From: Cinnamomum chago
Taxonomy: Eukaryota > Streptophyta > Magnoliopsida > Laurales > Lauraceae
Reading direction: 5' to 3'
DNA length: 64,000 nucleotides
NCBI GenBank assembly: GCA_038049695.1
Contig: CP142461.1
Coordinates: 25,923,001 to 25,987,000, forward strand
Below, piece by piece: positions 1 through 64,000 of the stretch. Each line of letters starts with the position of its first letter. The stretch's first letter is position 1. The translations under genes were made by a program, and so were the position numbers. The notes beneath the pieces are model-generated. The model did no database searches. It saw only the letters and a list, made by a program, of their open reading frames with translations, and was not told the origin of the DNA.

Positions 1-50
1 GAGTACGGCACTTGAAACTTTATTTTCTATTAAAGCTCGATCCTTGAGTT

Positions 51-58
51 TTCTAGAA
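51..58. other. TTCTAGAA palindrome (representative copy)
   Basis: This eight-base palindrome, with an XbaI-type TCTAGA core, lies about 50 bp into most monomers in the context GAGTTTTCTAGAAGGAG. It is altered in I (CTCTAAAAGG), G (CTAGATGG) and many D copies (TTCCAGAAGG). The TTCNNGAA arrangement matches two heat-shock-element subunits, but the third subunit needed for a standard site is not clear. Confidence 0.35.
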
Positions 59-158
59 GGAGTATTTGCACCGAGGGTCGTATGAAACATATAGTATAGT
101 GAACAATTTCGCATAGATACATTGATTGTGTTTTCGTGCAGAGGTTTCGTACAACGCG

Positions 159-171
159 CCCGAAGTTCGGG
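159..171. other. Central dyad CCCGAAGTTCGGG (representative copy)
   Basis: A perfect dyad with six-base arms around one G in monomer A. It is equally perfect in D and E and is reduced in B (CCTGAAG), G (CTCGAAG) and I (GTTCTAG). The inner CGAAGTTCG is present in nearly all monomers, including type 2 (TCCGAAGTTCGAC). It could be a protein-binding half-site pair or simply a conserved relic; nothing here proves function. Confidence 0.5.
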
Positions 172-322
172 TTTTAGCCTTTTCAGACGTAAGACATCCT
201 GAAGTGTTTACCAAACCCAAGATTCACATGAAACCCGTTTCAAACCGAAAAGAATCTCGAAATAACCTACAATGCGCATCTCAGCCAGAATCTCTTCAAT
301 TGGATTTCGACGCGTAAGACTA

Positions 323-645
323 GAGTACGACACTTGAAACCCTATTTCCTATTAAAGCCTGATCCTAGAGTTTTCTAGAAGGAGTATTTCCACCGAGGGT
401 CGCATGAAACACATAGTAGAGTCAACAGTTTCGCATATATACATTGATTGTGTTTTCGTGCAAAGGTTTCGTACAACGCGCCTGAAGTTCGGGTTTTAGC
501 GTTTTCAGACGTAAAACTTCATGAAGTGTTTACCAAACCCAAGACTCACCCGACACCAGTTTCAAACCGAAAAGAATCTCGAAATAACCTACAGTGCGCA
601 TCTCAGCCCAGAATCTCTTCAATTGGATTTCGAGGCGTAAGACTA
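323..645 (+). repeat. Monomer B (type 1), reference copy in U1
   Basis: It is 323 bp with a type-1 head and a type-1 tail. Diagnostic bases include AAAGCCTGATCC, TATTTCCACCGAG, ACAGTTTCGCATATATAC, GTGCAAAGG, TTTTAGCGTTTTCAG, ACTTCATGAAG and CCGACACCAG. In U1-U6 it reads AAGACTCACC and from U7 onward AAGATTCACC, a useful subfamily marker. Confidence 0.95.
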
Positions 646-968
646 GAGTACGACACTTGAAACCCTTTTTGCTTTTAGAAATGGATCCCGTAGTTTTCTA
701 GAAGGAGTATTTGGACCAAGAGTCGCATGGAACACATTGTAGAGTCAACAACTTCGTAAAGCTACATTCTTTGAGTTTTCATACAAACGTTCCGTATGAC
801 GCATCCGAAGTTCGACTTTTAGCCTTTTCAGTCACAGAACTCCCTGAAGTGTTTACAAAACCCAAGATTCACCCGAAACCCGTTTTAAAACGAAAAGAAT
901 CTCGAAATAACCTACAATGCGCAACTCAGCCCCGAATCCTTTCAATTGGATTTCGAGGCGTAAGACTA
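646..968 (+). repeat. Monomer C (type 2), reference copy in U1
   Basis: It is 323 bp with a type-2 head and a type-2 tail (GCGCAACTCAGCC, TCCTTTCAATTGG). Diagnostic bases include AAATGGATCCCGTAG, GGACCAAGAGTCGC, TACATTCTTTGAG, CATACAAACGTTCC and CCGTTTTAAAACG. In U1-U6 it has TTTGCTTTTAGAAATGG and GCATGGAACAC; from U7 it has TTTTCTTTTAAAAATGG (U12 keeps the G of TTTGC) and GCATGAAACAC. Confidence 0.95.
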
Positions 969-1290
969 GAGTACGACACTTGAAACCTTATTTTATATTA
1001 AAGCTCAATCCTAGAGTTTTCCAGAAGGAGTTTTTGCACCGAGGGTTGCGTGAAACACTTATTATAGTCAACAATTTCGCATAGATACATTGATTGTGTT
1101 TTCAGGCAAAGGTTTCGTACAACGCGCCCGAAGTTCGGGTTTAGCCTTTTCAGACGTAAAACTTCCTGAAGTGTTTACCAAACCCAAGATTCACATGTAA
1201 CCCGTTTCAAACCGAAAAGAATCTCGAAATAACCTACAATGCGCAACTCAGTCCAGAATCCTTTCAATTGGATTTCGAGGCGTAAGACTA
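969..1290 (+). repeat. Monomer D (type-1 head, type-2 tail), reference copy in U1
   Basis: It is 322 bp. The head is type 1 (ATATTAAAGC, GCACCGAGGGTTGCG, TTGTGTTTTC) but the tail reads GCGCAACTCAGTCC and TCCTTTCAATTGG, the type-2 form. It looks like an ancient fusion of a type-1 and a type-2 monomer. Other marks are ACACTTATTATAG, TTCAGGCAAAGG, a one-base-short GGGTTTAGCC and ACATGTAACCCG. The base loss closes the open frame seen in most other monomers. Confidence 0.92.
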
Positions 1291-1613
1291 GAGTACGACA
1301 CTTGAAATCTTATTTCCTATTAAAGCCCGATCCTAGAGTTTTCTAGAAGGAGTATTTTTACCGAGGGTCGTATGAAACACATAGTATAGTCAACAATTTC
1401 GCTTAGATACAATGATTGTGTTTTCGTGCAGAGGTTTCGTACAACGCGCCCGAAGTTCGGGTTTTAGCCTTTTTACACGTAAAACTTCCTAAAGCGTTTA
1501 CCAAACCCAAGATTCACCCGAAACCCGTTTCCAACCGAAAAGAATGTCGAAATAACCTACAGTGCGCATCCCAGCCCAGAATCTCTTCAATTGGATTTCA
1601 AGGCGTAAGACTA
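1291..1613 (+). repeat. Monomer E (type 1), reference copy in U1
   Basis: It is 323 bp with a type-1 head and tail. Diagnostic bases are GAAATCTTATTTCC, TATTTTTACCGAG, TTTCGCTTAGATAC, CTTTTTACACG, CCTAAAGCG, CCCGTTTCCAACCG, AGAATGTCG, GCGCATCCCAGCCC and GGATTTCAAGGCG. From U13 onward a T insertion (ACAATTTTCGC instead of ACAATTTCGC) makes it 324 bp. Confidence 0.95.
1523..1539 (-). other. CENP-B-box-like motif (representative copy in monomer E)
   Basis: The minus strand reads TTCGGTTGGAAACGGGT. The human CENP-B box is CTTCGTTGGAAACGGGA. TTGGAAACGGG is shared exactly, and seven of nine essential bases match in an ungapped alignment. The TTCG and CGGG half-sites are both present but eight bases apart instead of seven. 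A, D, F, G and J carry a one-base variant (TTTGAAACGGG; in A at 233-249). B, H and I have lost the CGGG half. Binding is not shown by this resemblance. Confidence 0.35.
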
Positions 1614-1936
1614 GACTACGACACTTAAAACCCTTTTTTCTTTTAAAACTCGATCCCGGAGTTTTCTAGAAGGAGTATTTGGACCGAGAGTCGCTTGAAA
1701 CACATAGTTGAGTCAACAACTTCGTAAAGCTCCATTGATTGAGTTTTCGTACAGAAGTTCCGTACGACTCTTCCGAAGTTCGACCTTTAGCCTTTTTAGT
1801 CGCAGAACTCCCTGAAGTGTTTACCAAACCCAAGATTCACCCGAAACCCGTTTCAAACCGAAAAGAATGCCGAAATAACCTACAATGCGCAACTCAGCCC
1901 AGAATCCTTTCAATTGGATTTCGAGGCGTAAGACTA
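1614..1936 (+). repeat. Monomer F (type 2), reference copy in U1
   Basis: It is 323 bp with a type-2 head and tail. It starts GACTACGACACTTAAAAC and carries GTCGCTTGAAAC, CATAGTTGAGTC, AAGCTCCATTG, TACGACTCTTCC, CGACCTTTAGCC, TTTTTAGTCGCAG and AGAATGCCG. It ends next to G at ACTAGAGAACGAC. Confidence 0.95.
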
Positions 1937-2259
1937 GAGAACGACACTTGAATCCTTATTTTCTATTAAAGCTCGATCCTGGAGTTTTCTAGATGGAGTA
2001 TTTGCACCGAGAGTCGAATGAAACACATAGTATAGTCAGCAATTTAACATAATTACATTGATTGTGTTTTCGTGCAGAGGTTTCGTACAACTCGCTCGAA
2101 GTTCGGGTTTTAGCCTTTTCAGACGTAAAACTTCCTGAAGTGTTTACCAAACCCAAGATTCACCCGAAACCCGTTTCAAACCGAAAAGAATATCGAATTA
2201 ACCAACAATGCACATCTCAGCCCAGAATCTTTTCAATTGGATTTCGAGACGTAAGACTA
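1937..2259 (+). repeat. Monomer G (type 1), reference copy in U1
   Basis: It is 323 bp with a type-1 head and tail. It starts GAGAACGACACTTGAATCC and carries TCTAGATGGAG, GTCGAATGAAAC, ATTTAACATAATTAC, CAACTCGCTCGAAG, GAATATCGAATTAACCAAC and GGATTTCGAGACG. This U1 copy has the private variant TGCACATCTCAG; other copies read TGCGCATCTCAG. Confidence 0.95.
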
Positions 2260-2583
2260 GAGTACGACACTTGAAACCGTTTTTTCTTTTAAAACTCGAT
2301 CCCGGAGTTTTCTAGAAGAGGTATTTGGACCGAGAGTCGCAAGAAACACATAGTAGAGTTAACAACTTCGTAAAGCTACATTGATTGAGTTTTCCTACAG
2401 AAGTTCCGTACGACGCTTCCGAAGTTCGACTTTTTAGCCTTTTCAGTCCCAAAATTCCCTGAAGTGTTTACCAAACCCAAGATTCACCCGAAAGCATTTT
2501 CAAACTGAAAAGAATCTCGAAATAACCTACAAGGCGCAACTCAGCCCAGAATCATTTCAATTGGATTTCGGGGCGTAAAACTA
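2260..2583 (+). repeat. Monomer H (type 2), reference copy in U1
   Basis: It is 324 bp with a type-2 head and tail. An extra T in CGACTTTTTAGCC sets its length and shifts any frame. Diagnostic bases are TCTAGAAGAGG, GTCGCAAGAAAC, AGAGTTAACAAC, TTTTCCTACAG, GTCCCAAAATTCCC, CGAAAGCATTTTC, CTACAAGGCGC, AATCATTTC and GATTTCGGGGCG. Confidence 0.95.
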
Positions 2584-2906
2584 GAGTACAACACTTGAAA
2601 CCTTATTTTCTATTAAAGCTCGATCCTAGAGTTCTCTAAAAGGAGTATTTGCACCGAGGGTCGCATGAAACACATAGTATAGTCAACAATTTCGCATAGA
2701 TACATTGATTGTGTTTTCGTGCAGAGGTTTCGTACAACGCGCTCGAAGTTCTAGTTTTAGCCGTTTCAATCGTAAAACTTCCTACAGTATTTCCCAAACC
2801 CAAGATTCACCCGAAACCCATTTCAAGCCGAAAAGAATCTCGAAATAACCTATAATGCGCAACGCAGCCCAGAATCTCTTCAATTGGATTTCGAGGCGTA
2901 AGACTA
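2584..2906 (+). repeat. Monomer I (type 1), reference copy in U1
   Basis: It is 323 bp with a type-1 head. It starts GAGTACAACAC and carries AGTTCTCTAAAAGG in place of the usual TTCTAGAAGG, so the TTCTAGAA palindrome is lost here. Other marks are GAAGTTCTAG, GCCGTTTCAATCG, CTACAGTATTTCCC, CCCATTTCAAG and TATAATGCGCAACGCAG. Confidence 0.95.
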
Positions 2907-3230
2907 GAGTACGACAATTGAAACCTTTTTTTCTTTTAAAACTCGATCGCGGAGTTTTCTAGAAGGAGTATTTGGACTGAGGGTCGCATGAAACACATAG
3001 TAGAGTCAAAAACTTCGTAAAGCTACATTGATTGAGTTTTCATACAGAAGTTCTGTACGATGCTTCCGAAGTTCGACTTTTAGCGTTTTCTAGAGGCAGA
3101 ACTCCCTGAAGTGTTTACCAAACCCAAGATTCACCCGAAACCCGTTTCAAACCGAAATGAATCTCGAAATAACCTACAATGCGCAACTCAGACCACAGTC
3201 CTTTCAATAGGATTTCGAGGCGTAAGACTA
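2907..3230 (+). repeat. Monomer J (type 2), reference copy in U1
   Basis: It is 324 bp with a type-2 head and tail. It carries CTCGATCGCGGAG, GGACTGAGGGTCGC, GTCAAAAACTTCG, GTTCTGTACGATGC, GCGTTTTCTAGAGGCAG, CCGAAATGAATC and GACCACAGTCCTTTC. It ends the canonical 10-mer. In U1-U9 it starts GAGTACGACAATTG; from U10 it starts GAGTACGACACTTG. Confidence 0.95.
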
Positions 3231-6200: not shown

Positions 6201-6460
6201 TTTGGACTGAGGGTCGCATGAAACACATAGTAGAGTCAAAAACTTCGTAAAGCTACATTGATTGAGTTTTCATACAGAAGTTCTGTACGATGCTTCCGAA
6301 GTTCGACTTTTAGCGTTTTCTAGAGGCAGAACTCCCTGAAGTGTTTACCAAACCCAAGATTCACCCGAAACCCGTTTCAAACCGAAATGAATCTCGAAAT
6401 AACCTACAATGCGCAACTCAGACCACAGTCCTTTCAATAGGATTTCGAGGCGTAAGACTA
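3231..6460 (+). repeat. HOR unit U2, canonical 10-mer (3230 bp)
   Basis: Same order and length as U1. Private bases include GGGTTGCATG in B near 3630, TTCGAGAAGGAGTTCTTG in D near 4250, GAATCATTATT at the start of G and GAAACGATTTTTTC at the start of H. Confidence 0.97.
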
Positions 6461-9690: not shown

Positions 9691-12600
9691 GAGTACGGCA
9701 CTTGAAACTTTATTTTCTATTAAAGCTCGATCCTTGAGTTTTCTAGAAGGAGTATTTGCACCGAGGGTCGTATGAAACATATAGTATAGTGAACAATTTC
9801 GCATAGATACATTGATTGTGTTTTCGTGCAGAGGTTTCGTACAACGCGCCCGAAGTTCGGGTTTTAGCCTTTTCAGACGTAAGACATCCTGAAGTGTTTA
9901 CCAAACCCAAGATTCACATGAAACCCGTTTCAAACCGAAAAGAATCTCGAAATAACCTACAATGCGCATCTCAGCCAGAATCTCTTCAATTGGATTTCGA
10001 CGCGTAAGACTAGAGTACGACACTTGAAACCCTATTTCCTATTAAAGCCTGATCCTAGAGTTTTCTAGAAGGAGTATTTCCACCGAGGGTCGCATGAAAC
10101 ACATAGTAGAGTCAACAGTTTCGCATATATACATTGATTGTGTTTTCGTGCAAAGGTTTCGTACAACGCGCCTGAAGTTCGGGTTTTAGCGTTTTCAGAC
10201 GTAAAACTTCATGAAGTGTTTACCAAACCCAAGACTCACCCGACACCAGTTTCAAACCGAAAAGAATCTCGAAATAACCTACAGTGCGCATCTCAGCCCA
10301 GAATCTCTTCAATTGGATTTCGAGGCGTAAGACTAGAGTACGACACTTGAAACCCTTTTTGCTTTTAGAAATGGATCCCGTAGTTTTCTAGAAGGAGTAT
10401 TTGGACCAAGAGTCGCATGGAACACATTGTAGAGTCAACAACTTCGTAAAGCTACATTCTTTGAGTTTTCATACAAACGTTCCGTATGACGCATCCGAAG
10501 TTCGACTTTTAGCCTTTTCAGTCACAGAACTCCCTGAAGTGTTTACAAAACCCAAGATTCACCCGAAACCCGTTTTAAAACGAAAAGAATCTCGAAATAA
10601 CCTACAATGCGCAACTCAGCCCCGAATCCTTTCAATTGGATTTCGAGGCGTAAGACTAGAGTACGACACTTGAAACCTTATTTTATATTAAAGCTCAATC
10701 CTAGAGTTTTCCAGAAGGAGTTTTTGCACCGAGGGTTGCGTGAAACACTTATTATAGTCAACAATTTCGCATAGATACATTGATTGTGTTTTCGTGCAGA
10801 GGTTTCGTACAACGCGCCCGAAGTTCGGGTTTTAGCCTTTTCAGACGTAAGACATCCTGAAGTGTTTACCAAACCCAAGATTCACATGAAACCCGTTTCA
10901 AACCGAAAAGAATCTCGAAATAACCTACAATGCGCATCTCAGCCAGAATCTCTTCAATTGGATTTCGACGCGTAAGACTAGAGTACGACACTTGAAACCC
11001 TATTTCCTATTAAAGCCTGATCCTAGAGTTTTCTAGAAGGAGTATTTCCACCGAGGGTCGCATGAAACACATAGTAGAGTCAACAGTTTCGCATATATAC
11101 ATTGATTGTGTTTTCGTGCAAAGGTTTCGTACAACGCGCCTGAAGTTCGGGTTTTAGCGTTTTCAGACGTAAAACTTCATGAAGTGTTTACCAAACCCAA
11201 GACTCACCCGACACCAGTTTCAAACCGAAAAGAATCTCGAAATAACCTACAGTGCGCATCTCAGCCCAGAATCTCTTCAATTGGATTTCGAGGCGTAAGA
11301 CTAGAGTACGACACTTGAAACCCTTTTTGCTTTTAGAAATGGATCCCGTAGTTTTCTAGAAGGAGTATTTGGACCAAGAGTCGCATGGAACACATTGTAG
11401 AGTCAACAACTTCGTAAAGCTACATTCTTTGAGTTTTCATACAAACGTTCCGTATGACGCATCCGAAGTTCGACTTTTAGCCTTTTCAGTCACAGAACTC
11501 CCTGAAGTGTTTACAAAACCCAAGATTCACCCGAAACCCGTTTTAAAACGAAAAGAATCTCGAAATAACCTACAATGCGCAACTCAGCCCCGAATCCTTT
11601 CAATTGGATTTCGAGGCGTAAGACTAGAGTACGACACTTGAAACCTTATTTTATATTAAAGCTCAATCCTAGAGTTTTCCAGAAGGAGTTTTTGCACCGA
11701 GGGTTGCGTGAAACACTTATTATAGTCAACAATTTCGCATAGATACATTGATTGTGTTTTCAGGCAAAGGTTTCGTACAACGCGCCCGAAGTTCGGGTTT
11801 AGCCTTTTCAGACGTAAAACTTCCTGAAGTGTTTACCAAACCCAAGATTCACATGTAACCCGTTTCAAACCGAAAAGAATCTCGAAATAACCTACAATGC
11901 GCAACTCAGTCCAGAATCCTTTCAATTGGATTTCGAGGCGTAAGACTAGAGTACGACACTTGAAATCTTATTTCCTATTAAAGCCCGATCCTAGAGTTTT
12001 CTAGAAGGAGTATTTTTACCGAGGGTCGTATGAAACACATAGTATAGTCAACAATTTCGCTTAGATACAATGATTGTGTTTTCGTGCAGAGGTTTCGTAC
12101 AACGCGCCCGAAGTTCGGGTTTTAGCCTTTTTACACGTAAAACTTCCTAAAGCGTTTACCAAACCCAAGATTCACCCGAAACCCGTTTCCAACCGAAAAG
12201 AATGTCGAAATAACCTACAGTGCGCATCCCAGCCCAGAATCTCTTCAATTGGATTTCAAGGCGTAAGACTAGACTACGACACTTAAAACCCTTTTTTCTT
12301 TTAAAACTCGATCCCGGAGTTTTCTAGAAGGAGTATTTGGACCGAGAGTCGCTTGAAACACATAGTTGAGTCAACAACTTCGTAAAGCTCCATTGATTGA
12401 GTTTTCGTACAGAAGTTCCGTACGACTCTTCCGAAGTTCGACCTTTAGCCTTTTTAGTCGCAGAACTCCCTGAAGTGTTTACCAAACCCAAGATTCACCC
12501 GAAACCCGTTTCAAACCGAAAAGAATGCCGAAATAACCTACAATGCGCAACTCAGCCCAGAATCCTTTCAATTGGATTTCGAGGCGTAAGACTAGAGAAC

Positions 12601-20100: not shown

Positions 20101-20348
20101 GTCGCATGAAACACATAGTAGAGTCAAAAACTTCGTAAAGCTACATTGATTGAGTTTTCATACAGAAGTTCTGTACGATGCTTCCGAAGTTCGACTTTTA
20201 GCGTTTTCTAGAGGCAGAACTCCCTGAAGTGTTTACCAAACCCAAGATTCACCCGAAACCCGTTTCAAACCGAAATGAATCTCGAAATAACCTACAATGC
20301 GCAACTCAGACCACAGTCCTTTCAATAGGATTTCGAGGCGTAAGACTA
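17119..20348 (+). repeat. HOR unit U6, canonical 10-mer (3230 bp)
   Basis: Canonical order. Private bases: AAATATCCTAC in A near 17383, GAGGCATAAG at the end of D near 18400 and TATTTTTTCCGAG in E near 18477. It is the last unit carrying the older B and C markers (AAGACTCACC; GCATGGAACAC). Confidence 0.97.
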
Positions 20349-44572: not shown

Positions 44573-44894
44573 GAGTACAACACTTGAAACCTTATTTTCT
44601 ATTAAAGCTCGATCCTTGAGTTTTCTAGAAGGAGTATTTGCACCGAGGGTCGTATGAAACATATAGTATAGTGAACAATTTCGCATAGATACATTGATTG
44701 TGTTTTCGTGCAGAGGTTTCGTACAACGCGCCCGAAGTTCGGGTTTTAGCCTTTTCAGACGTAAGACATCCTGAAGTGTTTACCAAACCCAAGATTCACA
44801 TGAAACCCGTTTCAAACCGAAAAGAATCTCGAAATAACCTACAATGCGCATCTCAGCCAGAATCTCTTCAATTGGATTTCGACGCGTAAGACTA
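44573..44894 (+). repeat. Hybrid monomer I/A, crossover junction (first copy)
   Basis: It starts with the I bases GAGTACAACAC and GAAACCTTATT, then switches to A at GATCCTTGAG and stays A to GACGCGTAAG. The last I-specific base is 44591 and the first A-specific base is 44617. Identical junctions open U16 (47157), U17 (49741) and U18 (52325), so one crossover was later copied. Confidence 0.94.
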
Positions 44895-47156
44895 GAGTAC
44901 GACACTTGAAACCCTATTTCCTATTAAAGCCTGATCCTAGAGTTTTCTAGAAGGAGTATTTCCACCGAGGGTCGCATGAAACACATAGTAGAGTCAACAG
45001 TTTCGCATATATACATTGATTGTGTTTTCGTGCAAAGGTTTCGTACAACGCGCCTGAAGTTCGGGTTTTAGCGTTTTCAGACGTAAAACTTCATGAAGTG
45101 TTTACCAAACCCAAGATTCACCCGACACCAGTTTCAAACCGAAAAGAATCTCGAAATAACCTACAGTGCGCATCTCAGCCCAGAATCTCTTCAATTGGAT
45201 TTCGAGGCGTAAGACTAGAGTACGACACTTGAAACCCTTTTTTCTTTTAAAAATGGATCCCGTAGTTTTCTAGAAGGAGTATTTGGACCAAGAGTCGCAT
45301 GAAACACATTGTAGAGTCAACAACTTCGTAAAGCTACATTCTTTGAGTTTTCATACAAACGTTCCGTATGACGCATCCGAAGTTCGACTTTTAGCCTTTT
45401 CAGTCACAGAACTCCCTGAAGTGTTTACAAAACCCAAGATTCACCCGAAACCCGTTTTAAAACGAAAAGAATCTCGAAATAACCTACAATGCGCAACTCA
45501 GCCCCGAATCCTTTCAATTGGATTTCGAGGCGTAAGACTAGAGTACGACACTTGAAACCTTATTTTATATTAAAGCTCAATCCTAGAGTTTTCTAGAAGG
45601 AGTTTTTGCACCGAGGGTTGCGTGAAACACTTATTATAGTCAACAATTTCGCATAGATACATTGATTGTGTTTTCAGGCAAAGGTTTCGTACAACGCGCC
45701 CGAAGTTCGGGTTTAGCCTTTTCAGACGTAAAACTTCCTGAAGTGTTTACCAAACCCAAGATTCACATGTAACCCGTTTCAAACCGAAAAGAATCTCGAA
45801 ATAACCTACAATGCGCAACTCAGTCCAGAATCCTTTCAATTGGATTTCGAGGCGTAAGACTAGAGTACGACACTTGAAATCTTATTTCCTATTAAAGCCC
45901 GATCCTAGAGTTTTCTAGAAGGAGTATTTTTACCGAGGGTCGTATGAAACACATAGTATAGTCAACAATTTTCGCTTAGATACAATGATTGTGTTTTCGT
46001 GCAGAGGTTTCGTACAACGCGCCCGAAGTTCGGGTTTTAGCCTTTTTACACGTAAAACTTCCTAAAGCGTTTACCAAACCCAAGATTCACCCGAAACCCG
46101 TTTCCAACCGAAAAGAATGTCGAAATAACCTACAGTGCGCATCCCAGCCCAGAATCTCTTCAATTGGATTTCAAGGCGTAAGACTAGACTACGACACTTA
46201 AAACCCTTTTTTCTTTTAAAACTCGATCCCGGAGTTTTCTAGAAGGAGTATTTGGACCGAGAGTCGCTTGAAACACATAGTTGAGTCAACAACTTCGTAA
46301 AGCTCCATTGATTGAGTTTTCGTACAGAAGTTCCGTACGACTCTTCCGAAGTTCGACCTTTAGCCTTTTTAGTCGCAGAACTCCCTGAAGTGTTTACCAA
46401 ACCCAAGATTCACCCGAAACCCGTTTCAAACCGAAAAGAATGCCGAAATAACCTACAATGCGCAACTCAGCCCAGAATCCTTTCAATTGGATTTCGAGGC
46501 GTAAGACTAGAGAACGACACTTGAATCCTTATTTTCTATTAAAGCTCGATCCTGGAGTTTTCTAGATGGAGTATTTGCACCGAAAGTCGAATGAAACACA
46601 TAGTATAGTCAGCAATTTAACATAATTACATTGATTGTGTTTTCGTGCAGAGGTTTCGTACAACTCGCTCGAAGTTCGGGTTTTAGCCTTTTCAGACGTA
46701 AAACTTCCTGAAGTGTTTACCAAACCCAAGATTCACCCGAAACCCGTTTCAAACCGAAAAGAATATCGAATTAACCAACAATGCGCATCTCAGCCCAGAA
46801 TCTTTTCAATTGGATTTCGAGACGTAAGACTAGAGTACGACACTTGAAACGCTTTTTTCTTTTAAAACTCGATCCCGGAGTTTTCTAGAAGAGGTATTTG
46901 GACCGAGAGTCGCAAGAAACACATAGTAGAGTTAACAACTTCGTAAAGCTACATTGATTGAGTTTTCCTACAGAAGTTCCGTACGACGCTTCCGAAGTTC
47001 GACTTTTTAGCCTTTTCAGTCCCAAAATTCCCTGAAGTGTTTACCAAACCCAAGATTCACCCGAAAGCATTTTCAAACTGAAAAGAATCTCGAAATAACC
47101 TACAAGGCGCAACTCAGCCCAGAATCATTTCAATTGGATTTCGGGGCGTAAAACTA
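44573..47156 (+). repeat. HOR unit U15, 8-mer lacking I and J (2584 bp)
   Basis: Order (I/A)-B-C-D-E-F-G-H. It is the first of three consecutive units with this structure. G has CACCGAAAGTCG and E has the T insertion. Confidence 0.96.
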
Positions 47157-49740
47157 GAGTACAACACTTGAAACCTTATTTTCTATTAAAGCTCGATCCT
47201 TGAGTTTTCTAGAAGGAGTATTTGCACCGAGGGTCGTATGAAACATATAGTATAGTGAACAATTTCGCATAGATACATTGATTGTGTTTTCGTGCAGAGG
47301 TTTCGTACAACGCGCCCGAAGTTCGGGTTTTAGCCTTTTCAGACGTAAGACATCCTGAAGTGTTTACCAAACCCAAGATTCACATGAAACCCGTTTCAAA
47401 CCGAAAAGAATCTCGAAATAACCTACAATGCGCATCTCAGCCAGAATCTCTTCAATTGGATTTCGACGCGTAAGACTAGAGTACGACACTTGAAACCCTA
47501 TTTCCTATTAAAGCCTGATCCTAGAGTTTTCTAGAAGGAGTATTTCCACCGAGGGTCGCATGAAACACATAGTAGAGTCAACAGTTTCGCATATATACAT
47601 TGATTGTGTTTTCGTGCAAAGGTTTCGTACAACGCGCCTGAAGTTCGGGTTTTAGCGTTTTCAGACGTAAAACTTCATGAAGTGTTTACCAAACCCAAGA
47701 TTCACCCGACACCAGTTTCAAACCGAAAAGAATCTCGAAATAACCTACAGTGCGCATCTCAGCCCAGAATCTCTTCAATTGGATTTCGAGGCGTAAGACT
47801 AGAGTACGACACTTGAAACCCTTTTTTCTTTTAAAAATGGATCCCGTAGTTTTCTAGAAGGAGTATTTGGACCAAGAGTCGCATGAAACACATTGTAGAG
47901 TCAACAACTTCGTAAAGCTACATTCTTTGAGTTTTCATACAAACGTTCCGTATGACGCATCCGAAGTTCGACTTTTAGCCTTTTCAGTCACAGAACTCCC
48001 TGAAGTGTTTACAAAACCCAAGATTCACCCGAAACCCGTTTTAAAACGAAAAGAATCTCGAAATAACCTACAATGCGCAACTCAGCCCCGAATCCTTTCA
48101 ATTGGATTTCGAGGCGTAAGACTAGAGTACGACACTTGAAACCTTATTTTATATTAAAGCTCAATCCTAGAGTTTTCTAGAAGGAGTTTTTGCACCGAGG
48201 GTTGCGTGAAACACTTATTATAGTCAACAATTTCGCATAGATACATTGATTGTGTTTTCAGGCAAAGGTTTCGTACAACGCGCCCGAAGTTCGGGTTTAG
48301 CCTTTTCAGACGTAAAACTTCCTGAAGTGTTTACCAAACCCAAGATTCACATGTAACCCGTTTCAAACCGAAAAGAATCTCGAAATAACCTACAATGCGC
48401 AACTCAGTCCAGAATCCTTTCAATTGGATTTCGAGGCGTAAGACTAGAGTACGACACTTGAAATCTTATTTCCTATTAAAGCCCGATCCTAGAGTTTTCT
48501 AGAAGGAGTATTTTTACCGAGGGTCGTATGAAACACATAGTATAGTCAACAATTTTCGCTTAGATACAATGATTGTGTTTTCGTGCAGAGGTTTCGTACA
48601 ACGCGCCCGAAGTTCGGGTTTTAGCCTTTTTACACGTAAAACTTCCTAAAGCGTTTACCAAACCCAAGATTCACCCGAAACCCGTTTCCAACCGAAAAGA
48701 ATGTCGAAATAACCTACAGTGCGCATCCCAGCCCAGAATCTCTTCAATTGGATTTCAAGGCGTAAGACTAGACTACGACACTTAAAACCCTTTTTTCTTT
48801 TAAAACTCGATCCCGGAGTTTTCTAGAAGGAGTATTTGGACCGAGAGTCGCTTGAAACACATAGTTGAGTCAACAACTTCGTAAAGCTCCATTGATTGAG
48901 TTTTCGTACAGAAGTTCCGTACGACTCTTCCGAAGTTCGACCTTTAGCCTTTTTAGTCGCAGAACTCCCTGAAGTGTTTACCAAACCCAAGATTCACCCG
49001 AAACCCGTTTCAAACCGAAAAGAATGCCGAAATAACCTACAATGCGCAACTCAGCCCAGAATCCTTTCAATTGGATTTCGAGGCGTAAGACTAGAGAACG
49101 ACACTTGAATCCTTATTTTCTATTAAAGCTCGATCCTGGAGTTTTCTAGATGGAGTATTTGCACCGAAAGTCGAATGAAACACATAGTATAGTCAGCAAT
49201 TTAACATAATTACATTGATTGTGTTTTCGTGCAGAGGTTTCGTACAACTCGCTCGAAGTTCGGGTTTTAGCCTTTTCAGACGTAAAACTTCCTGAAGTGT
49301 TTACCAAACCCAAGATTCACCCGAAACCCGTTTCAAACCGAAAAGAATATCGAATTAACCAACAATGCGCATCTCAGCCCAGAATCTTTTCAATTGGATT
49401 TCGAGACGTAAGACTAGAGTACGACACTTGAAACGCTTTTTTCTTTTAAAACTCGATCCCGGAGTTTTCTAGAAGAGGTATTTGGACCGAGAGTCGCAAG
49501 AAACACATAGTAGAGTTAACAACTTCGTAAAGCTACATTGATTGAGTTTTCCTACAGAAGTTCCGTACGACGCTTCCGAAGTTCGACTTTTTAGCCTTTT
49601 CAGTCCCAAAATTCCCTGAAGTGTTTACCAAACCCAAGATTCACCCGAAAGCATTTTCAAACTGAAAAGAATCTCGAAATAACCTACAAGGCGCAACTCA
49701 GCCCAGAATCATTTCAATTGGATTTCGGGGCGTAAAACTA
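47157..49740 (+). repeat. HOR unit U16, 8-mer lacking I and J (2584 bp)
   Basis: Same order and markers as U15, with no clear private difference found by eye. It opens with the I/A hybrid at 47157-47478. Confidence 0.96.
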
Positions 49741-52324
49741 GAGTACAACACTTGAAACCTTATTTTCTATTAAAGCTCGATCCTTGAGTTTTCTAGAAGG
49801 AGTATTTGCACCGAGGGTCGTATGAAACATATAGTATAGTGAACAATTTCGCATAGATACATTGATTGTGTTTTCGTGCAGAGGTTTCGTACAACGCGCC
49901 CGAAGTTCGGGTTTTAGCCTTTTCAGACGTAAGACATCCTGAAGTGTTTACCAAACCCAAGATTCACATGAAACCCGTTTCAAACCGAAAAGAATCTCGA
50001 AATAACCTACAATGCGCATCTCAGCCAGAATCTCTTCAATTGGATTTCGACGCGTAAGACTAGAGTACGACACTTGAAACCCTATTTCCTATTAAAGCCT
50101 GATCCTAGAGTTTTCTAGAAGGAGTATTTCCACCGAGGGTCGCATGAAACACATAGTAGAGTCAACAGTTTCGCATATATACATTGATTGTGTTTTCGTG
50201 CAAAGGTTTCGTACAACGCGCCTGAAGTTCGGGTTTTAGCGTTTTCAGACGTAAAACTTCATGAAGTGTTTACCAAACCCAAGATTCACCCGACACCAGT
50301 TTCAAACCGAAAAGAATCTCGAAATAACCTACAGTGCGCATCTCAGCCCAGAATCTCTTCAATTGGATTTCGAGGCGTAAGACTAGAGTACGACACTTGA
50401 AACCCTTTTTTCTTTTAAAAATGGATCCCGTAGTTTTCTAGAAGGAGTATTTGGACCAAGAGTCGCATGAAACACATTGTAGAGTCAACAACTTCGTAAA
50501 GCTACATTCTTTGAGTTTTCATACAAACGTTCCGTATGACGCATCCGAAGTTCGACTTTTAGCCTTTTCAGTCACAGAACTCCCTGAAGTGTTTACAAAA
50601 CCCAAGATTCACCCGAAACCCGTTTTAAAACGAAAAGAATCTCGAAATAACCTACAATGCGCAACTCAGCCCCGAATCCTTTCAATTGGATTTCGAGGCG
50701 TAAGACTAGAGTACGACACTTGAAACCTTATTTTATATTAAAGCTCAATCCTAGAGTTTTCTAGAAGGAGTTTTTGCACCGAGGGTTGCGTGAAACACTT
50801 ATTATAGTCAACAATTTCGCATAGATACATTGATTGTGTTTTCAGGCAAAGGTTTCGTACAACGCGCCCGAAGTTCGGGTTTAGCCTTTTCAGACGTAAA
50901 ACTTCCTGAAGTGTTTACCAAACCCAAGATTCACATGTAACCCGTTTCAAACCGAAAAGAATCTCGAAATAACCTACAATGCGCAACTCAGTCCAGAATC
51001 CTTTCAATTGGATTTCGAGGCGTAAGACTAGAGTACGACACTTGAAATCTTATTTCCTATTAAAGCCCGATCCTAGAGTTTTCTAGAAGGAGTATTTTTA
51101 CCGAGGGTCGTATGAAACACATAGTATAGTCAACAATTTTCGCTTAGATACAATGATTGTGTTTTCGTGCAGAGGTTTCGTACAACGCGCCCGAAGTTCG
51201 GGTTTTAGCCTTTTTACACGTAAAACTTCCTAAAGCGTTTACCAAACCCAAGATTCACCCGAAACCCGTTTCCAACCGAAAAGAATGTCGAAATAACCTA
51301 CAGTGCGCATCCCAGCCCAGAATCTCTTCAATTGGATTTCAAGGCGTAAGACTAGACTACGACACTTAAAACCCTTTTTTCTTTTAAAACTCGATCCCGG
51401 AGTTTTGTAGAAGGAGTATTTGGACCGAGAGTCGCTTGAAACACATAGTTGAGTCAACAACTTCGTAAAGCTCCATTGATTGAGTTTTCGTACAGAAGTT
51501 CCGTACGACTCTTCCGAAGTTCGACCTTTAGCCTTTTTAGTCGCAGAACTCCCTGAAGTGTTTACCAAACCCAAGATTCACCCGAAACCCGTTTCAAACC
51601 GAAAAGAATGCCGAAATAACCTACAATGCGCAACTCAGCCCAGAATCCTTTCAATTGGATTTCGAGGCGTAAGACTAGAGAACGACACTTGAATCCTTAT
51701 TTTCTATTAAAGCTCGATCCTGGAGTTTTCTAGATGGAGTATTTGCACCGAAAGTCGAATGAAACACATAGTATAGTCAGCAATTTAACATAATTACATT
51801 GATTGTGTTTTCGTGCAGAGGTTTCGTACAACTCGCTCGAAGTTCGGGTTTTAGCCTTTTCAGACGTAAAACTTCCTGAAGTGTTTACCAAACCCAAGAT
51901 TCACCCGAAACCCGTTTCAAACCGAAAAGAATATCGAATTAACCAACAATGCGCATCTCAGCCCAGAATCTTTTCAATTGGATTTCGAGACGTAAGACTA
52001 GAGTACGACACTTGAAACGCTTTTTTCTTTTAAAACTCGATCCCGGAGTTTTCTAGAAGAGGTATTTGGACCGAGAGTCGCAAGAAACACATAGTAGAGT
52101 TAACAACTTCGTAAAGCTACATTGATTGAGTTTTCCTACAGAAGTTCCGTACGACGCTTCCGAAGTTCGACTTTTTAGCCTTTTCAGTCCCAAAATTCCC
52201 TGAAGTGTTTACCAAACCCAAGATTCACCCGAAAGCATTTTCAAACTGAAAAGAATCTCGAAATAACCTACAAGGCGCAACTCAGCCCAGAATCATTTCA
52301 ATTGGATTTCGGGGCGTAAAACTA
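49741..52324 (+). repeat. HOR unit U17, 8-mer lacking I and J (2584 bp)
   Basis: Same structure as U15 and U16. A private change, GAGTTTTGTAGAAGG in F near 51408, breaks the TTCTAGAA palindrome there. It opens with the I/A hybrid at 49741-50062. Confidence 0.96.
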
Positions 52325-57815: not shown

Positions 57816-58138
57816 GAGTACGACACTTGAAACACTATTTCCTATTAAAGCCTGATCCTAGAGTTTTCTAGAAGGAGTATTTCCACCGAGGGTCGCATGA
57901 AACACATAGTAGAGTCAACAGTTTCGCATATATACATTGATTGTGTTTTCGTGCAAAGGTTTCGTACAACGCGCCTGAAGTTCGGGTTTTAGCGTTTTCA
58001 GACGTAAAACTTCATGAAGTGTTTACCAAACCCAAGATTCACCCGACACCAGTTTCAAACCGAAAAGAATCTCGAAATAACCTACAGTGCGCATCTCAGC
58101 CCAGAATCTCTTCAATTGGATTTCGAGGCGTAAGACTA
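57816..58138 (+). repeat. B monomer joined directly after G (H/B junction) in U19
   Basis: The preceding G ends normally (GATTTCGAGACG). The next monomer reads GAAACACTATTTCC and AAAGCCTGATCC, so it is B rather than H. The exchange lies between about 57807 and 57835 in sequence identical in H and B. The base change giving GAAACACTATTTCC is otherwise seen only in B of U10 (near 30378). Confidence 0.93.
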
Positions 58139-58783
58139 GAGTACGACACTTGAAACCCTTTTTTCTTTTAAAAATGGATCCCGTAGTTTTCTAGAAGGAG
58201 TATTTGGACCAAGAGTCGCATGAAACACATTGTAGAGTCAACAACTTCGTAAAGCTACATTCTTTGAGTTTTCATACAAACGTTCCGTATGACGCATCCG
58301 AAGTTCGACTTTTAGCCTTTTCAGTCACAGAACTCCCTGAAGTGTTTACAAAACCCAAGATTCACCCGAAACCCGTTTTAAAACGAAAAGAATCTCGAAA
58401 TAACCTACAATGCGCAACTCAGCCCCGAATCCTTTCAATTGGATTTCGAGGCGTAAGACTAGAGTACGACACTTGAAACCTTATTTTATATTAAAGCTCA
58501 ATCCTAGAGTTTTCTAGAAGGAGTTTTTGCACCGAGGGTTGCGTGAAACACTTATTATAGTCAACAATTTCGCATAGATACATTGATTGTGTTTTCAGGC
58601 AAAGGTTTCGTACAACGCGCCCGAAGTTCGGGTTTAGCCTTTTCAGACGTAAAACTTCCTGAAGTGTTTACCAAACCCAAGATTCACATGTAACCCGTTT
58701 CAAACCGAAAAGAATCTCGAAATAACCTACAATGCGCAACTCAGTCCAGAATCCTTTCAATTGGATTTCGAGGCGTAAGACTA

Positions 58784-59106
58784 GAGTACGACACTTGAAA
58801 TCTTATTTCCTATTAAAGCCCGATCCTAGAGTTTTCTAGAAGGAGTATTTCCACCGAGGGTCGCATGAAACACATAGTAGAGTCAACAGTTTCGCATATA
58901 TACATTGATTGTGTTTTCGTGCAAAGGTTTCGTACAACGCGCCTGAAGTTCGGGTTTTAGCGTTTTCAGACGTAAAACTTCATGAAGTGTTTACCAAACC
59001 CAAGATTCACCCGACACCAGTTTCAAACCGAAAAGAATCTCGAAATAACCTACAGTGCGCATCTCAGCCCAGAATCTCTTCAATTGGATTTCAAGGCGTA
59101 AGACTA
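58784..59106 (+). repeat. Mosaic monomer E/B/E in U19 (gene-conversion-like)
   Basis: Both ends are E (GAAATCTTATTTCC and AAAGCCCGATCC on the left; GATTTCAAGGCG and ACTAGACTACG on the right). Between them every diagnostic base is B: TATTTCCACCGAG, CGCATATATAC, GTGCAAAGG, ACTTCATGAAG, CCGACACCAG and GCATCTCAGCCC. The minimum B tract is 58851-59064 and the maximum 58822-59092. Length is an unaltered 323 bp and the flanking monomers D and F are in normal order. Confidence 0.93.
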
Positions 59107-60723
59107 GACTACGACACTTAAAACCCTTTTTTCTTTTAAAACTCGATCCCGGAGTTTTCTAGAAGGAGTATTTGGACCGAGAGTCGCTTGAAACACATAG
59201 TTGAGTCAACAACTTCGTAAAGCTCCATTGATTGAGTTTTCGTACAGAAGTTCCGTACGACTCTTCCGAAGTTCGACCTTTAGCCTTTTTAGTCGCAGAA
59301 CTCCCTGAAGTGTTTACCAAACCCAAGATTCACCCGAAACCCGTTTCAAACCGAAAAGAATGCCGAAATAACCTACTATGCGCAACTCAGCCCAGAATCC
59401 TTTCAACTGGATTTCGAGGCGTAAGACTAGAGAACGACACTTGAATCCTTATTTTCTATTAAAGCTCGATCCTGGAGTTTTCTAGATGGAGTATTTGCAC
59501 CGAGAGTCGAATGAAACACATAGTATAGTCAGCAATTTAACATAATTACATTGATTGTGTTTTCGTGCAGAGGTTTCGTACAACTCGCTCGAAGTTCGGG
59601 TTTTACCCTTTTCAGACGTAAAACTTCCTGAAGTGTTTACCAAACCCAAGATTCACCCGAAACCCGTTTCAAACCGAAAAGAATATCGAATTAACCAACA
59701 ATGCGCATCTCAGCCCAGAATCTTTTCAATTGGATTTCGAGACGTAAGACTAGAGTACGACACTTGAAACGCTTTTTTCTTTTAAAACTCGATCCCGGAG
59801 TTTTCTAGAAGAGGTATTTGGACCGAGAGTCGCAAGAAACACATAGTAGAGTTAACAACTTCGTAAAGCTACATTGATTGAGTTTTCCTACAGAAGTTCC
59901 GTACGACGCTTCCGAAGTTCGACTTTTTAGCCTTTTCAGTCCCAAAATTCCCTGAAGTGTTTACCAAACCCAAGATTCACCCGAAAGCATTTTCAAACTG
60001 AAAAGAATCTCGAAATAACCTACAAGGCGCAACTCAGCCCAGAATCATTTCAATTGGATTTCGGGGCGTAAAACTAGAGTACAACACTTGAAACCTTATT
60101 TTCTATTAAAGCTCGATCCTAGAGTTCTCTAAAAGGAGTATTTGCACCGAGGGTCGCATGAAACACATAGTATAGTCAACAATTTCGCATAGATACATTG
60201 ATTGTGTTTTCGTGCAGAGGTTTCGTACAACGCGCTCGAAGTTCTAGTTTTAGCCGTTTCAATCGTAAAACTTCCTACAGTATTTCCCAAACCCAAGATT
60301 CACCCGAAACCCATTTCAAGCCGAAAAGAATCTCGAAATAACCTATAATGCGCAACGCAGCCCAGAATCTCTTCAATTGGATTTCGAGGCGTAAGACTAG
60401 AGTACGACACTTGAAACCCTTTTTTCTTTTAAAACTCGATCGCGGAGTTTTCTAGAAGGAGTATTTGGACTGAGGGTCGCATGAAACACATAGTAGAGTC
60501 AAAAACTTCGTAAAGCTACATTGATTGAGTTTTCATACAGAAGTTCTGTACGATGCTTCCGAAGTTCGACTTTTAGCGTTTTCTAGAGGCAGAACTCCCT
60601 GAAGTGTTTACCAAACCCAAGATTCACCCGAAACCCGTTTCAAACCGAAATGAATCTCGAAATAACCTACAATGCGCAACTCAGACCACAGTCCTTTCAA
60701 TAGGATTTCGAGGCGTAAGACTA

Positions 60724-63308
60724 GAGTACGGCACTTGAAACTTTATTTTCTATTAAAGCTCGATCCTTGAGTTTTCTAGAAGGAGTATTTGCACCGAGGG
60801 TCGTATGAAACATATAGTATAGTGAACAATTTCGCATAGATACATTGATTGTGTTTTCGTGCAGAGGTTTCGTACAACGCGCCCGAAGTTCGGGTTTTAG
60901 CCTTTTCAGACGTAAGACATCCTGAAGTGTTTACCAAACCCAAGATTCACATGAAACCCGTTTCAAACCGAAAAGAATCTCGAAATAACCTACAATGCGC
61001 ATCTCAGCCAGAATCTCTTCAATTGGATTTCGACGCGTAAGACTAGAGTACGACACTTGAAACCCTATTTCCTATTAAAGCCTGATCCTAGAGTTTTCTA
61101 GAAGGAGTATTTCCACCGAGGGTCGCATGAAACACATAGTAGAGTCAACAGTTTCGCATATATACATTGATTGTGTTTTCGTGCAAAGGTTTCGTACAAC
61201 GCGCCTGAAGTTCGGGTTTTAGCGTTTTCAGACGTAAAACTTCATGAAGTGTTTACCAAACCCAAGATTCACCCGACACCAGTTTCAAACCGAAAAGAAT
61301 CTCGAAATAACCTACAGTGCGCATCTCAGCCCAGAATCTCTTCAATTGGATTTCGAGGCGTAAGACTAGAGTACGACACTTGAAACCCTTTTTTCTTTTA
61401 AAAATGGATCCCGTAGTTTTCTAGAAGGAGTATTTGGACCAAGAGTCGCATGAAACACATTGTAGAGTCAACAACTTCGTAAAGCTACATTCTTTGAGTT
61501 TTCATACAAACGTTCCGTATGACGCATCCGAAGTTCGACTTTTAGCCTTTTCAGTCACAGAACTCCCTGAAGTGTTTACAAAACCCAAGATTCGCCCGAA
61601 ACCCGTTTTAAAACGAAAAGAATCTCGAAATAACCTACAATGCGCAACTCAGCCCCGAATCCTTTCAATTGGATTTCGAGGCGTAAGACTAGAGTACGAC
61701 ACTTGAAACCTTATTTTATATTAAAGCTCAATCCTAGAGTTTTCCAGAAGGAGTTTTTGCACCGAGGGTTGCGTGAAACACTTATTATAGTCAACAATTT
61801 CGCATAGATACATTGATTGTGTTTTCAGGCAAAGGTTTCGTACAACGCGCCCGAAGTTCGGGTTTAGCCTTTTCAGACGTAAAACTTCCTGAAGTGTTTA
61901 CCAAACCCAAGATTCACATGTAACCCGTTTCAAACCGAAAAGAATCTCGAAATAACCTACAATGCGCAACTCAGTCCAGAATCCTTTCAATTGGATTTCG
62001 AGGCGTAAGACTAGAGTACGACACTTGAAATCTTATTTCCTATTAAAGCCCGATCCTAGAGTTTTCTAGAAGGAGTATTTTTACCGAGGGTCGTATGAAA
62101 CACATAGTATAGTCAACAATTTTCGCTTAGATACAATGATTGTGTTTTCGTGCAGAGGTTTCGTACAACGCGCCCGAAGTTCGGGTTTTAGCCTTTTTAC
62201 ACGTAAAACTTCCTAAAGCGTTTACCAAACCCAAGATTCACCCGAAACCCGTTTCCAACCGAAAAGAATGTCGAAATAACCTACAGTGCGCATCCCAGCC
62301 CAGAATCTCTTCAATTGGATTTCAAGGCGTAAGACTAGACTACGACACTTAAAACCCTTTTTTCTTTTAAAACTCGATCCCGGAGTTTTCTAGAAGGAGT
62401 ATTTGGACCGAGAGTCGCTTGAAACACATAGTTGAGTCAACAACTTCGTAAAGCTCCATTGATTGAGTTTTCGTACAGAAGTTCCGTACGACTCTTCCGA
62501 AGTTCGACTTTTTAGCCTTTTCAGTCCCAAAATTCCCTGAAGTGTTTACCAAACCCAAGATTCACCCGAAAGCATTTTCAAACTGAAAAGAATCTCGAAA
62601 TAACCTACAAGGCGCAACTCAGCCCAGAATCATTTCAATTGGATTTCGGGGCGTAAAACTAGAGTACAACACTTGAAACCTTATTTTCTATTAAAGCTCG
62701 ATCCTAGAGTTCTCTAAAAGGAGTATTTGCACCGAGGGTCGCATGAAACACATAGTATAGTCAACAATTTCGCATAGATACATTGATTGTGTTTTCGTGC
62801 AGAGGTTTCGTACAACGCGCTCGAAGTTCTAGTTTTAGCCGTTTCAATCGTAAAACTTCCTACAGTATTTCCCAAACCCAAGATTCACCCGAAACCCATT
62901 TCAAGCCGAAAAGAATCTCGAAATAACCTATAATGCGCAACGCAGCCCAGAATCTCTTCAATTGGATTTCGAGGCGTAAGACTAGAGTACGACACTTGAA
63001 ACCCTTTTTTCTTTTAAAACTCGATCGCGGAGTTTTCTAGAAGGAGTATTTGGACTGAGGGTCGCATGAAACACATAGTAGAGTCAAAAACTTCGTAAAG
63101 CTACATTGATTGAGTTTTCATACAGAAGTTCTGTACGATGCTTCCGAAGTTCGACTTTTAGCGTTTTCTAGAGGCAGAACTCCCTGAAGTGTTTACCAAA
63201 CCCAAGATTCACCCGAAACCCGTTTCAAACCGAAATGAATCTCGAAATAACCTACAATGCGCAACTCAGACCACAATCCTTTCAATAGGATTTCGAGGCG
63301 TAAGACTA
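60724..63308 (+). repeat. HOR unit U20, 8-mer lacking G (2585 bp)
   Basis: Order A-B-C-D-E-(F/H)-I-J. It differs from the U15-U17 8-mers in both the monomers lost and the junction. The extra base relative to 2584 follows from the monomer lengths (E 324, F/H 324, J 324). Private: GATTCGCCCG in C near 61593. Confidence 0.95.
62338..62661 (+). repeat. Hybrid monomer F/H, crossover junction in U20
   Basis: It starts as F (GTCGCTTGAAAC, CATAGTTGAG, TACGACTCTTCC) and becomes H at CGACTTTTTAGCC, then GTCCCAAAATTCCC, CGAAAGCATTTTC and GATTTCGGGGCG. The last F-specific base is 62493 and the first H-specific base about 62509. The exchange therefore lies in roughly 15 bp around the conserved CGAAGTTCG dyad. 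Two monomers were lost. Confidence 0.94.
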
Positions 63309-64000
63309 GAGTACGGCACTTGAAACTTTATTTTCTATTAAAGCTCGATCCTTGAGTTTTCTAGAAGGAGTATTTGCACCGAGGGTCGTATGAAACATAT
63401 AGTATAGTGAACAATTTCGCATAGATACATTGATTGTGTTTTCGTGCAGAGGTTTCGTACAACGCGCCCGAAGTTCGGGTTTTAGCCTTTTCAGACGTAA
63501 GACATCCTGAAGTGTTTACCAAACCCAAGATTCACATGAAACCCGTTTCAAACCGAAAAGAATCTCGAAATAACCTACAATGCGCATCTCAGCCAGAATC
63601 TCTTCAATTGGATTTCGACGCGTAAGACTAGAGTACGACACTTGAAACCCTATTTCCTATTAAAGCCTGATCCTAGAGTTTTCTAGAAGGAGTATTTCCA
63701 CCGAGGGTCGCATGAAACACATAGTAGAGTCAACAGTTTCGCATATATACATTGATTGTGTTTTCGTGCAAAGGTTTCGTACAACGCGCCTGAAGTTCGG
63801 GTTTTAGCGTTTTCAGACGTAAAACTTCATGAAGTGTTTACCAAACCCAAGATTCACCCGACACCAGTTTCAAACCGAAAAGAATCTCGAAATAACCTAC
63901 AGTGCGCATCTCAGCCCAGAATCTCTTCAATTGGATTTCGAGGCGTAAGACTAGAGTACGACACTTGAAACCCTTTTTTCTTTTAAAAATGGATCCCGTA
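63309..64000 (+). repeat. HOR unit U21, partial (A, B and 47 bp of C)
   Basis: A is 63309-63630, B is 63631-63953, and C is cut at the window end. B has the later AAGATTCACC marker. The array evidently continues beyond the window. Confidence 0.95.

What the first reader, a model, noticed from the sequence alone, without database searches (positions are those of the whole stretch)
1..64000. Uncatalogued-looking 10-monomer higher-order satellite of 3230 bp
The complete 64 kb is a homogeneous HOR array: copies of the unit differ by tenths of a percent by eye, while monomers within a unit differ by roughly 10-25%. HOR arrays of this length with a ~323-bp monomer mark loci of active unequal exchange. 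They are typical of functional centromeres in some lineages. I do not recognise the family.
Basis: partly seen in the sequence, partly recalled or inferred. Interest (0 to 1): 0.72.

Follow-up and report, generated by a model that had tools for sequence, protein, structure and literature searches.

The report
Likely plant centromere satellite, ten-part repeat
This stretch is part of a roughly two-million-base block of repeated DNA near the middle of a plant chromosome, made of near-identical ten-part units and very probably part of the centromere; it is a new example of a known kind of DNA, built in a way that resembles human centromeres.

Summary
The 64 kb is one satellite: 198 monomers of about 323 bp in a ten-monomer unit A-J of 3,230 bp; 13 complete units are 99.52% identical on average, monomer types 81-92%. 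The window lies on contig 11 of a 1.06-Gb plant genome. Samples place the array core at about 25.42-27.41 Mb of this 56.6-Mb contig, with older, divergent copies on both sides. Monomers form two classes in the order YYXYYXYXYX; all 20 class-diagnostic columns lie in the first 201 of 328. Five resolved hybrid monomers all join same-class partners. Diverged relatives are listed on 10 of 14 contigs; contigs 1, 4, 8 and 11 show different unit spacings. Best explanation: a centromeric satellite evolving by out-of-register recombination and layered expansion. CENH3 occupancy cannot be tested here. No satellite catalogue was available; text searches of an open-access library found no match. The species is unknown. 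It is a new member of a known kind with a human-like architecture.

The parts
1..64000 (+). whole window: part of the core of the HOR satellite array (contig 11, 25,923,001-25,987,000)
1..3230 (+). first complete 10-monomer unit (A-J), 3,230 bp
1..322 (+). monomer A (class Y)
323..645 (+). monomer B (class Y)
646..968 (+). monomer C (class X)
969..1289 (+). monomer D (class Y); the D/E boundary is uncertain by one base
1290..1613 (+). monomer E (class Y)
1614..1936 (+). monomer F (class X; the type most often closest to copies in the flanks and on contig 8)
1937..2259 (+). monomer G (class Y)
2260..2583 (+). monomer H (class X)
2584..2906 (+). monomer I (class Y)
2907..3230 (+). monomer J (class X)
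10659..10980 (+). D/A hybrid monomer (Y/Y) at a D-to-B junction
   Evidence: 14 mismatches to D and 14 to A, 1 as a mosaic, break in columns 101-136
43279..43602 (+). B/E hybrid monomer (Y/Y) at the A-to-E junction
   Evidence: 9 mismatches as E, 19 as B, 3 as a mosaic, break in columns 97-105
44573..52324 (+). three complete 8-monomer units ABCDEFGH in a row (I and J missing). The A after each of four H-to-A junctions (at 44,573, 47,157, 49,741 and 52,325) fits an I/A hybrid
   Evidence: 3 mismatches as A, 0 as an I/A mosaic, at all four; break in columns 19-44
58783..59106 (+). E/B hybrid (Y/Y) in an E slot between D and F, as a conversion tract would look
   Evidence: 5 mismatches as B, 21 as E, 1 as a mosaic, break in columns 38-67
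62338..62661 (+). F/H hybrid monomer (X/X) at the E-to-H junction
   Evidence: 11 mismatches as H, 16 as F, 0 as a mosaic, break in columns 157-172

Best explanation
The window is part of the young core of a centromeric satellite array of a plant. An older satellite, diverged copies of which persist in the flanks and on other chromosomes, split on this chromosome into two monomer classes (X and Y). A run of ten such monomers was then amplified by out-of-register recombination into a long homogeneous array, displacing older copies to the edges. It most likely serves as the DNA platform on which CENH3 nucleosomes and the kinetochore form. Shown here: the HOR structure, its homogeneity, hybrid monomers, older copies on both sides, interior position, and diverged relatives with other unit spacings on other contigs. 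Inferred: CENH3 occupancy, centromere function, and the order of events.
For: (1) Homogeneous 10-mer HOR in the window. (2) Of 19 ten-kb stretches of contig 11 fetched, 15 hold the satellite; L004 (25.45 Mb, a retrotransposon insert), L017 (28.0), L018 (29.0) and L019 (25.20) do not. Stretches from 25.50 to 27.41 Mb match the window's types at a mean of 97.1-99.8%; L001 and L002 at the left only at 87-88%; L003 changes from old to core type near 25.420 Mb. Older copies also lie near 25.03 and 25.16 Mb, and, beyond the core's end at 27,407,511, at 27.42 Mb; 1-kb samples at 27.45, 27.50, 27.60 and 27.80 Mb hold none apart from one weak 25-base hit at 27.45. (3) The array sits at 44-48% of a 56.6-Mb contig. 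(4) Hybrids D/A, B/E, E/B and F/H from a search of all pairs and I/A from a junction-guided test: five of five same-class. (5) Divergence grows with distance. (6) Other contigs: contig 8, 31.36-36.0 Mb, 2,577-bp and 1,938-bp periods; contig 1, about 3,292-3,295 bp; contig 4, 973 bp, in part grouped to 2,910 bp; further members listed on contigs 2, 3, 5, 6, 7 and 12. (7) Tree: all 14 contig 8 rows form one group (0.97), and so do the core's Y types (0.97) and X types (0.98).
Against: No CENH3, methylation or cytological data. No members were listed on contigs 9, 10, 13 and 14, though listings are capped at 100 places. Members are also listed away from the interior or from a single place per contig: contig 2 at 106.76 of 110.5 Mb, contig 12 at 54.5 of 70.2 Mb, contig 3 at 44.9 as well as 60-63 Mb, contig 7 at 21.8 as well as 33.4 Mb, contig 5 at 42.9, 45.2 and 56.7 Mb. 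Contig 11 copies do not form a single group in the tree: the oldest ones and one flank copy fall outside. HOR arrays without CENH3 peaks are known in poplar (PMC12046899, passages). A young homogeneous array proves recent amplification, not kinetochore function.
Confidence: 0.78

Rival explanations
1. Pericentromeric or non-centromeric heterochromatic satellite: the array is amplified and homogenised in the same way, but the kinetochore sits elsewhere, for example on retrotransposon-rich DNA.
For: HOR arrays that show no CENH3 peaks exist in poplar (PMC12046899, passages seen). A tandem run of a retrotransposon-like element lies within the array's left part at 25.426-25.475 Mb. Some contigs list the family at more than one place.
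Against: Interior array on contig 11 with young core and older copies on both sides; dense related arrays in the interior of contigs 1, 3, 4 and 8.
Confidence: 0.17
2. Selfish or knob-like satellite spreading among chromosomes with no chromosomal role.
For: Isolated copies exist: about two monomers at contig 2, 106.757 Mb, and several secondary places on contigs 3, 5 and 7.
Against: On contigs 8 and 11 the sampled copies lie in one interior block; contig 8 copies group together in the tree.
Confidence: 0.04
3. Assembly artefact: the unit or the array length is an artefact of collapsed or duplicated reads.
For: Near-identical repeats are hard to assemble; no reads were available to check.
Against: 0 of 78 pairs of complete units are identical; 85 of 114 distinct variants are seen once; hybrid monomers occur; other contigs have other spacings.
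Confidence: 0.01

Closest known systems
Human alpha-satellite higher-order repeat arrays
   Same: Long chromosome-specific HORs, near-identical copies of a unit with diverged monomers inside, two monomer classes partly alternating, monomeric copies at the edges, families spanning sets of chromosomes (compared with PMC8997354, passages seen).
   Different: 323-bp monomer here; 171 bp in human; the two sequences were not aligned. No CENP-B box. Class differences are spread over about 180 bp, while in human the A and B boxes are short sites. Monomers within a unit are more alike (81-92% here; 50-70% stated for human in the review).
Papaver centromeric satellites (PCEN338 and others; PMC11406182, passages seen)
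   Same: Plant, large satellite arrays, similar monomer length in one case (338 bp by its name), layered expansion described, different satellites on groups of chromosomes.
   Different: HOR lengths there follow a negative exponential distribution; in the sampled core here one long unit and its derivatives dominate. Sequences were not compared.
Plant HOR satellites in general, such as switchgrass and sorghum (PMC4053949, passages seen) and poplar Palv156 (PMC12046899, passages)
   Same: HOR organisation in plants is already documented and widespread; in poplar similarity falls with distance and monomers cluster by chromosome.
   Different: The passages seen give shorter units (an AB dimer in sorghum; units of up to 1,131 bp in switchgrass). 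A 10-monomer, 3.2-kb unit in samples across about 0.9 Mb, with derivatives across about 2 Mb, is longer. I cannot say that no such plant case is in print.

Membership tests
Higher-order repeat (HOR) satellite array | multi-monomer unit repeated with much higher identity between units than between its monomers | tested here: met
   99.52% between complete units against 81-92% between types
Higher-order repeat (HOR) satellite array | chromosome-specific unit | tested here: inconclusive
   an exact 50-mer of the family: 890 forward hits and 1 reverse; the listing is capped and seems to run in contig order: one place on contig 2, the rest on contig 11, so contigs 12-14 are not covered. Contigs 1, 4 and 8 show other spacings
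Centromeric satellite | megabase tandem array in the chromosome interior | tested here: met
   core about 25.42-27.41 of 56.58 Mb, from samples, not from continuous sequence
Centromeric satellite | family present on all or most chromosomes | tested here: inconclusive
   listed on 10 of 14 contigs; contigs 9, 10, 13, 14 not seen, but listings are cut at 100 places
Centromeric satellite | CENH3 nucleosome occupancy | not testable with these tools
   no chromatin data
Layered expansion | older divergent copies flank a young homogeneous core | tested here: met
   left flank samples (L001-L003, L046-L048) and one right flank sample (L041)
Alpha satellite | about 171-bp monomer | tested here: not met
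   monomer 323 bp; for two types the halves are no more alike than shuffles
Alpha satellite | CENP-B box in part of the monomers | tested here: not met
   0 matches to the box core on either strand of the window; a one-base-longer spacing TTCG-N8-CGGG occurs 134 times on the minus strand (box pattern recalled)
Subtelomeric or knob satellite | main arrays near chromosome ends | tested here: not met
   dense arrays seen on contigs 1, 3, 4, 8, 11 lie at about 44-67% of contig length (lengths); interstitial knobs are not excluded

The most novel reading that the evidence does not exclude
A plant has independently arrived at the human type of centromere: each chromosome carries its own long HOR, drawn from two or more families that span chromosomes, with a young core, old flanks and two monomer classes. 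Here the classes differ only in a 5' module of about 200 bp while the last about 127 bp is kept in common. The shared 3' part could then be the stretch held constant by function (CENH3 nucleosome or inner-kinetochore contact) and the 5' part free to diverge.
Probability: 0.25. Interest if true: 0.62.

Novelty: new member of a known kind. Interest (0 to 1): 0.42.

Why it matters
If CENH3 sits on this core, the species is a plant system for testing models of HOR growth (unequal exchange, break-induced replication, layered expansion) that lean heavily on human alpha satellite. The clean class modules and identifiable same-class hybrids let recombination events be read directly. Contig 8 keeps a relative with a single class in the copies sampled, so the origin of the two classes on contig 11 can be followed.

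Tried and rejected
Rejected or corrected. (a) My first idea that the family is confined to contigs 8 and 11 was wrong: that pattern was too strict, and looser or different ones found tens of thousands of matches (38,926 forward and 4,426 reverse, reversed control 8 and 9; 34,143 and 15,840, control 0; 9,512 and 8,093, control 0; these sets may overlap). (b) A dimeric origin of the monomer from two nucleosome-sized halves: for types A and F the halves are no more alike than shuffles, p 0.65 and 0.68. (c) CENP-B-box function: no box. (d) Special folding: z-scores -0.79 and 0.73 for two monomers; palindromes 8 against a shuffle mean of 7.49. (e) A 9.5-bp AT periodicity equals 323/34, hence a harmonic of the repeat, and is not used. 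(f) RNA or tRNA origin: nothing found. (g) A 72-base pattern that I composed found nothing, because that combination does not occur exactly; uninformative. (h) Locating other centromeres by a retrotransposon: 12 stretches of 1.5 kb on contigs 1, 3, 7, 9, 10 and 12 held no satellite; sites were guesses, and contigs 1, 3, 7 and 12 do list it elsewhere. (i) A unit of about 1,889 bp on contig 3, which I first read off the listing, is not borne out: spacings at 3, 6, 7, 10 and 13 monomers are about equally common; only the multiples of about 315 bp stand. (j) Species: RuBisCO genes and fragments show a plant, but I could not name it; twelve chromosomes plus two small contigs is only a guess from contig lengths. 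(k) First monomer-cutting script timed out and was rewritten.

Literature: searches. Their listings were seen; passages were seen from PMC8997354, PMC12046899, PMC11406182, PMC4053949 and, for the '323' mentions only, PMC9281035, PMC7736813 and PMC7010299. No paper was read whole. The library lacks most subscription papers, and no repeat catalogue was available, so 'not in print' cannot be claimed.
Full report
Observation. The window is one tandem array. I cut it into 198 monomers of 320-325 bp, which form ten types in the order A-J. Thirteen complete 10-mers of 3,228-3,231 bp have a mean pairwise identity of 99.52%, range 99.20-99.91. Mean identity within a type is 99.02-99.85%; between type consensuses it is 81.2-92.0%.

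Two monomer classes. A, B, D, E, G, I (class Y) are 88.6-92.0% alike among themselves, C, F, H, J (class X) 89.8-91.7%, and the two classes 81.2-85.4%. Of all 210 ways to split the ten types 4:6, this split has 20 diagnostic columns and the next best has 3. All 20 lie in alignment columns 20-200 and none in 201-327, although diversity within classes is similar along the monomer. If 20 columns fell evenly, none in that last part would have a probability of about 5e-5 (my arithmetic; the cut was chosen after seeing the data). Either exchange keeps the 3' part common to both classes or the classes began as chimeras. In the contig 8 copies sampled, the diagnostic sites carry a fixed mixture of X and Y states (mostly YYYXXXXYXYXYXXXYYYXX), as expected of a relative that branched off before X and Y separated. 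The old left flank of contig 11 also carries mixtures. Order in the unit: YYXYYXYXYX.

Recombination. Ten of 197 adjacencies are irregular. A search over all pairs of types finds four hybrids that gain at least 4 columns: D/A, B/E, E/B and F/H. A test guided by the junctions adds I/A at all four H-to-A junctions, with a gain of 3 columns; its presence in all four suggests one event, later amplified as 8-mers. All five are same-class. A random pair of types would be same-class in 42 of 90 cases (my arithmetic), so this is suggestive only. The G-to-B junction could not be resolved. The E/B hybrid sits in an E slot, as a conversion tract would. Divergence between same-type monomers rises from 0.41% within 6 kb to 0.64-0.74% beyond 45 kb.

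Surroundings. The window is contig 11, 25,923,001-25,987,000, of a 1.061-Gb, 14-contig assembly. The organism is a plant: fragments of the RuBisCO large-subunit gene lie in large contigs and small-subunit genes are present. Of 19 ten-kb stretches of contig 11, 15 hold the satellite. The 10-mer dominates the samples at 25.60-26.51 Mb, with local variants in L006 and L010; a 12-mer, ABCDEFGHIFIJ, appears at 26.70-27.01 Mb, and a further variant at the right edge. L003 changes from old to core type near 25.420 Mb. To the left, L002 and the first half of L003 hold an older unit recurring about every 2.5 kb, with shortened monomers of 255 bp; L001 alternates two variants. Older copies near 25.03 and 25.16 Mb are about 86-89% like their best matches among the copies compared. 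On the right the core ends at 27,407,511, and a block at 27.42 Mb has best matches of 92.6-93.5% to F. The extent between samples is inferred. This is the layered pattern described for human centromeres (PMC8997354, passages) and for Papaver (PMC11406182, passages).

Relatives in the genome. A 33-mer at up to 3 mismatches has 19,020 forward and 2 reverse hits; the listed places are on contigs 2, 8 and 11. A looser 25-mer has 38,926 and 4,426, against 8 and 9 for the reversed control, and its listing adds contigs 1, 4 and 7. A 30-mer of the sister branch has 34,143 and 15,840, control 0, listed on contigs 1 and 3. Further patterns add contigs 5 and 12 (18 and 17 hits) and 6 (9,512 and 8,093); (1 and 5 hits) repeats contigs 2 and 12. 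So 10 of 14 contigs have listed members; contigs 9, 10, 13 and 14 do not, but long listings stop at 100 places. For contigs 3, 5, 6 and 12 the family rests on pattern hits alone; for contigs 1, 2, 4, 7, 8 and 11 sequence was fetched and aligned. Spacings differ: on contig 8, 2,577 bp (autocorrelation 1.0 over 5.5 kb) and 1,938 bp (0.996 over 3.5 kb); on contig 1 about 3,292-3,295 bp, with opposite strand at 78.0 and 81.0 Mb; on contig 4, 973 bp (0.911), in part grouped to 2,910 bp; on contig 3 multiples of about 315 bp, unit not resolved. Identity to the contig 11 core is about 83% for contig 8, 86% for the contig 7 copy and 69-73% for contigs 1, 2 and 4. A tree of 46 sequences (10 type consensuses and 36 single copies that I chose from those sampled) separates contigs 7, 8, 11 and the distal contig 2 copy from contigs 1, 4 and the central contig 2 copy (support 0.99, midpoint root). 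The contig 8 rows (0.97) and both core classes (0.97, 0.98) are groups; contig 11 as a whole is not.

Mechanism and standing. The data fit out-of-register recombination of a satellite with repeated amplification of new units within the array. Centromere function is inferred from position, size, layering and spread across chromosomes. Poplar shows that HOR arrays may lack CENH3 peaks (PMC12046899, passages), and several contigs list the family at more than one place, so this stays an inference at about 0.78. HORs in plants are not new (PMC4053949: clear cases in 76 of 171 species with Sanger data, plants and animals together; passages). What looks unusual to me is the length of the unit and the two-class module structure. 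I therefore file it as a new member of a known kind.

Noticed in passing
contig 11, 25.426-25.475 Mb (L004 covers 25,450,001-25,460,000): A retrotransposon-like element repeats head to tail about every 6,022 bp, with nine copies of its repeat motif in a row inside the left part of the satellite; two neighbouring copies are 98% alike. One open frame has a zinc-knuckle match below Pfam's cut-off.
   Followed up: partly
genome-wide, contigs 1-12: The same element's 62-base repeat motif occurs 99 times exactly, on every one of contigs 1-12 and not on 13 or 14, often as pairs or runs about 6 kb apart.
   Followed up: no
L020, 6,691-7,342 (contig 2, 106.757 Mb): About two isolated satellite monomers in non-satellite sequence near the end of contig 2, on the minus strand.
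   Followed up: partly
L063, about 245-405 (contig 7, 33.35 Mb): A satellite monomer is interrupted by a short insert ending in a run of A and looking like a SINE (seen by eye in the sequence printed).
   Followed up: no
contig 1, 78.0 and 81.0 Mb: The satellite on contig 1 is on opposite strands at the two places with almost the same 3.29-kb spacing, which suggests an inversion within the array.
   Followed up: no
L062, first 110 bases (contig 1, 76.303 Mb): Sequence like the retrotransposon repeat motif of L004, reverse complemented, lies close to satellite copies on contig 1 as well (by eye).
   Followed up: no
window, minus strand: TTCG-N8-CGGG, one base longer than the CENP-B box spacing, occurs 134 times; probably coincidence.
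   Followed up: partly
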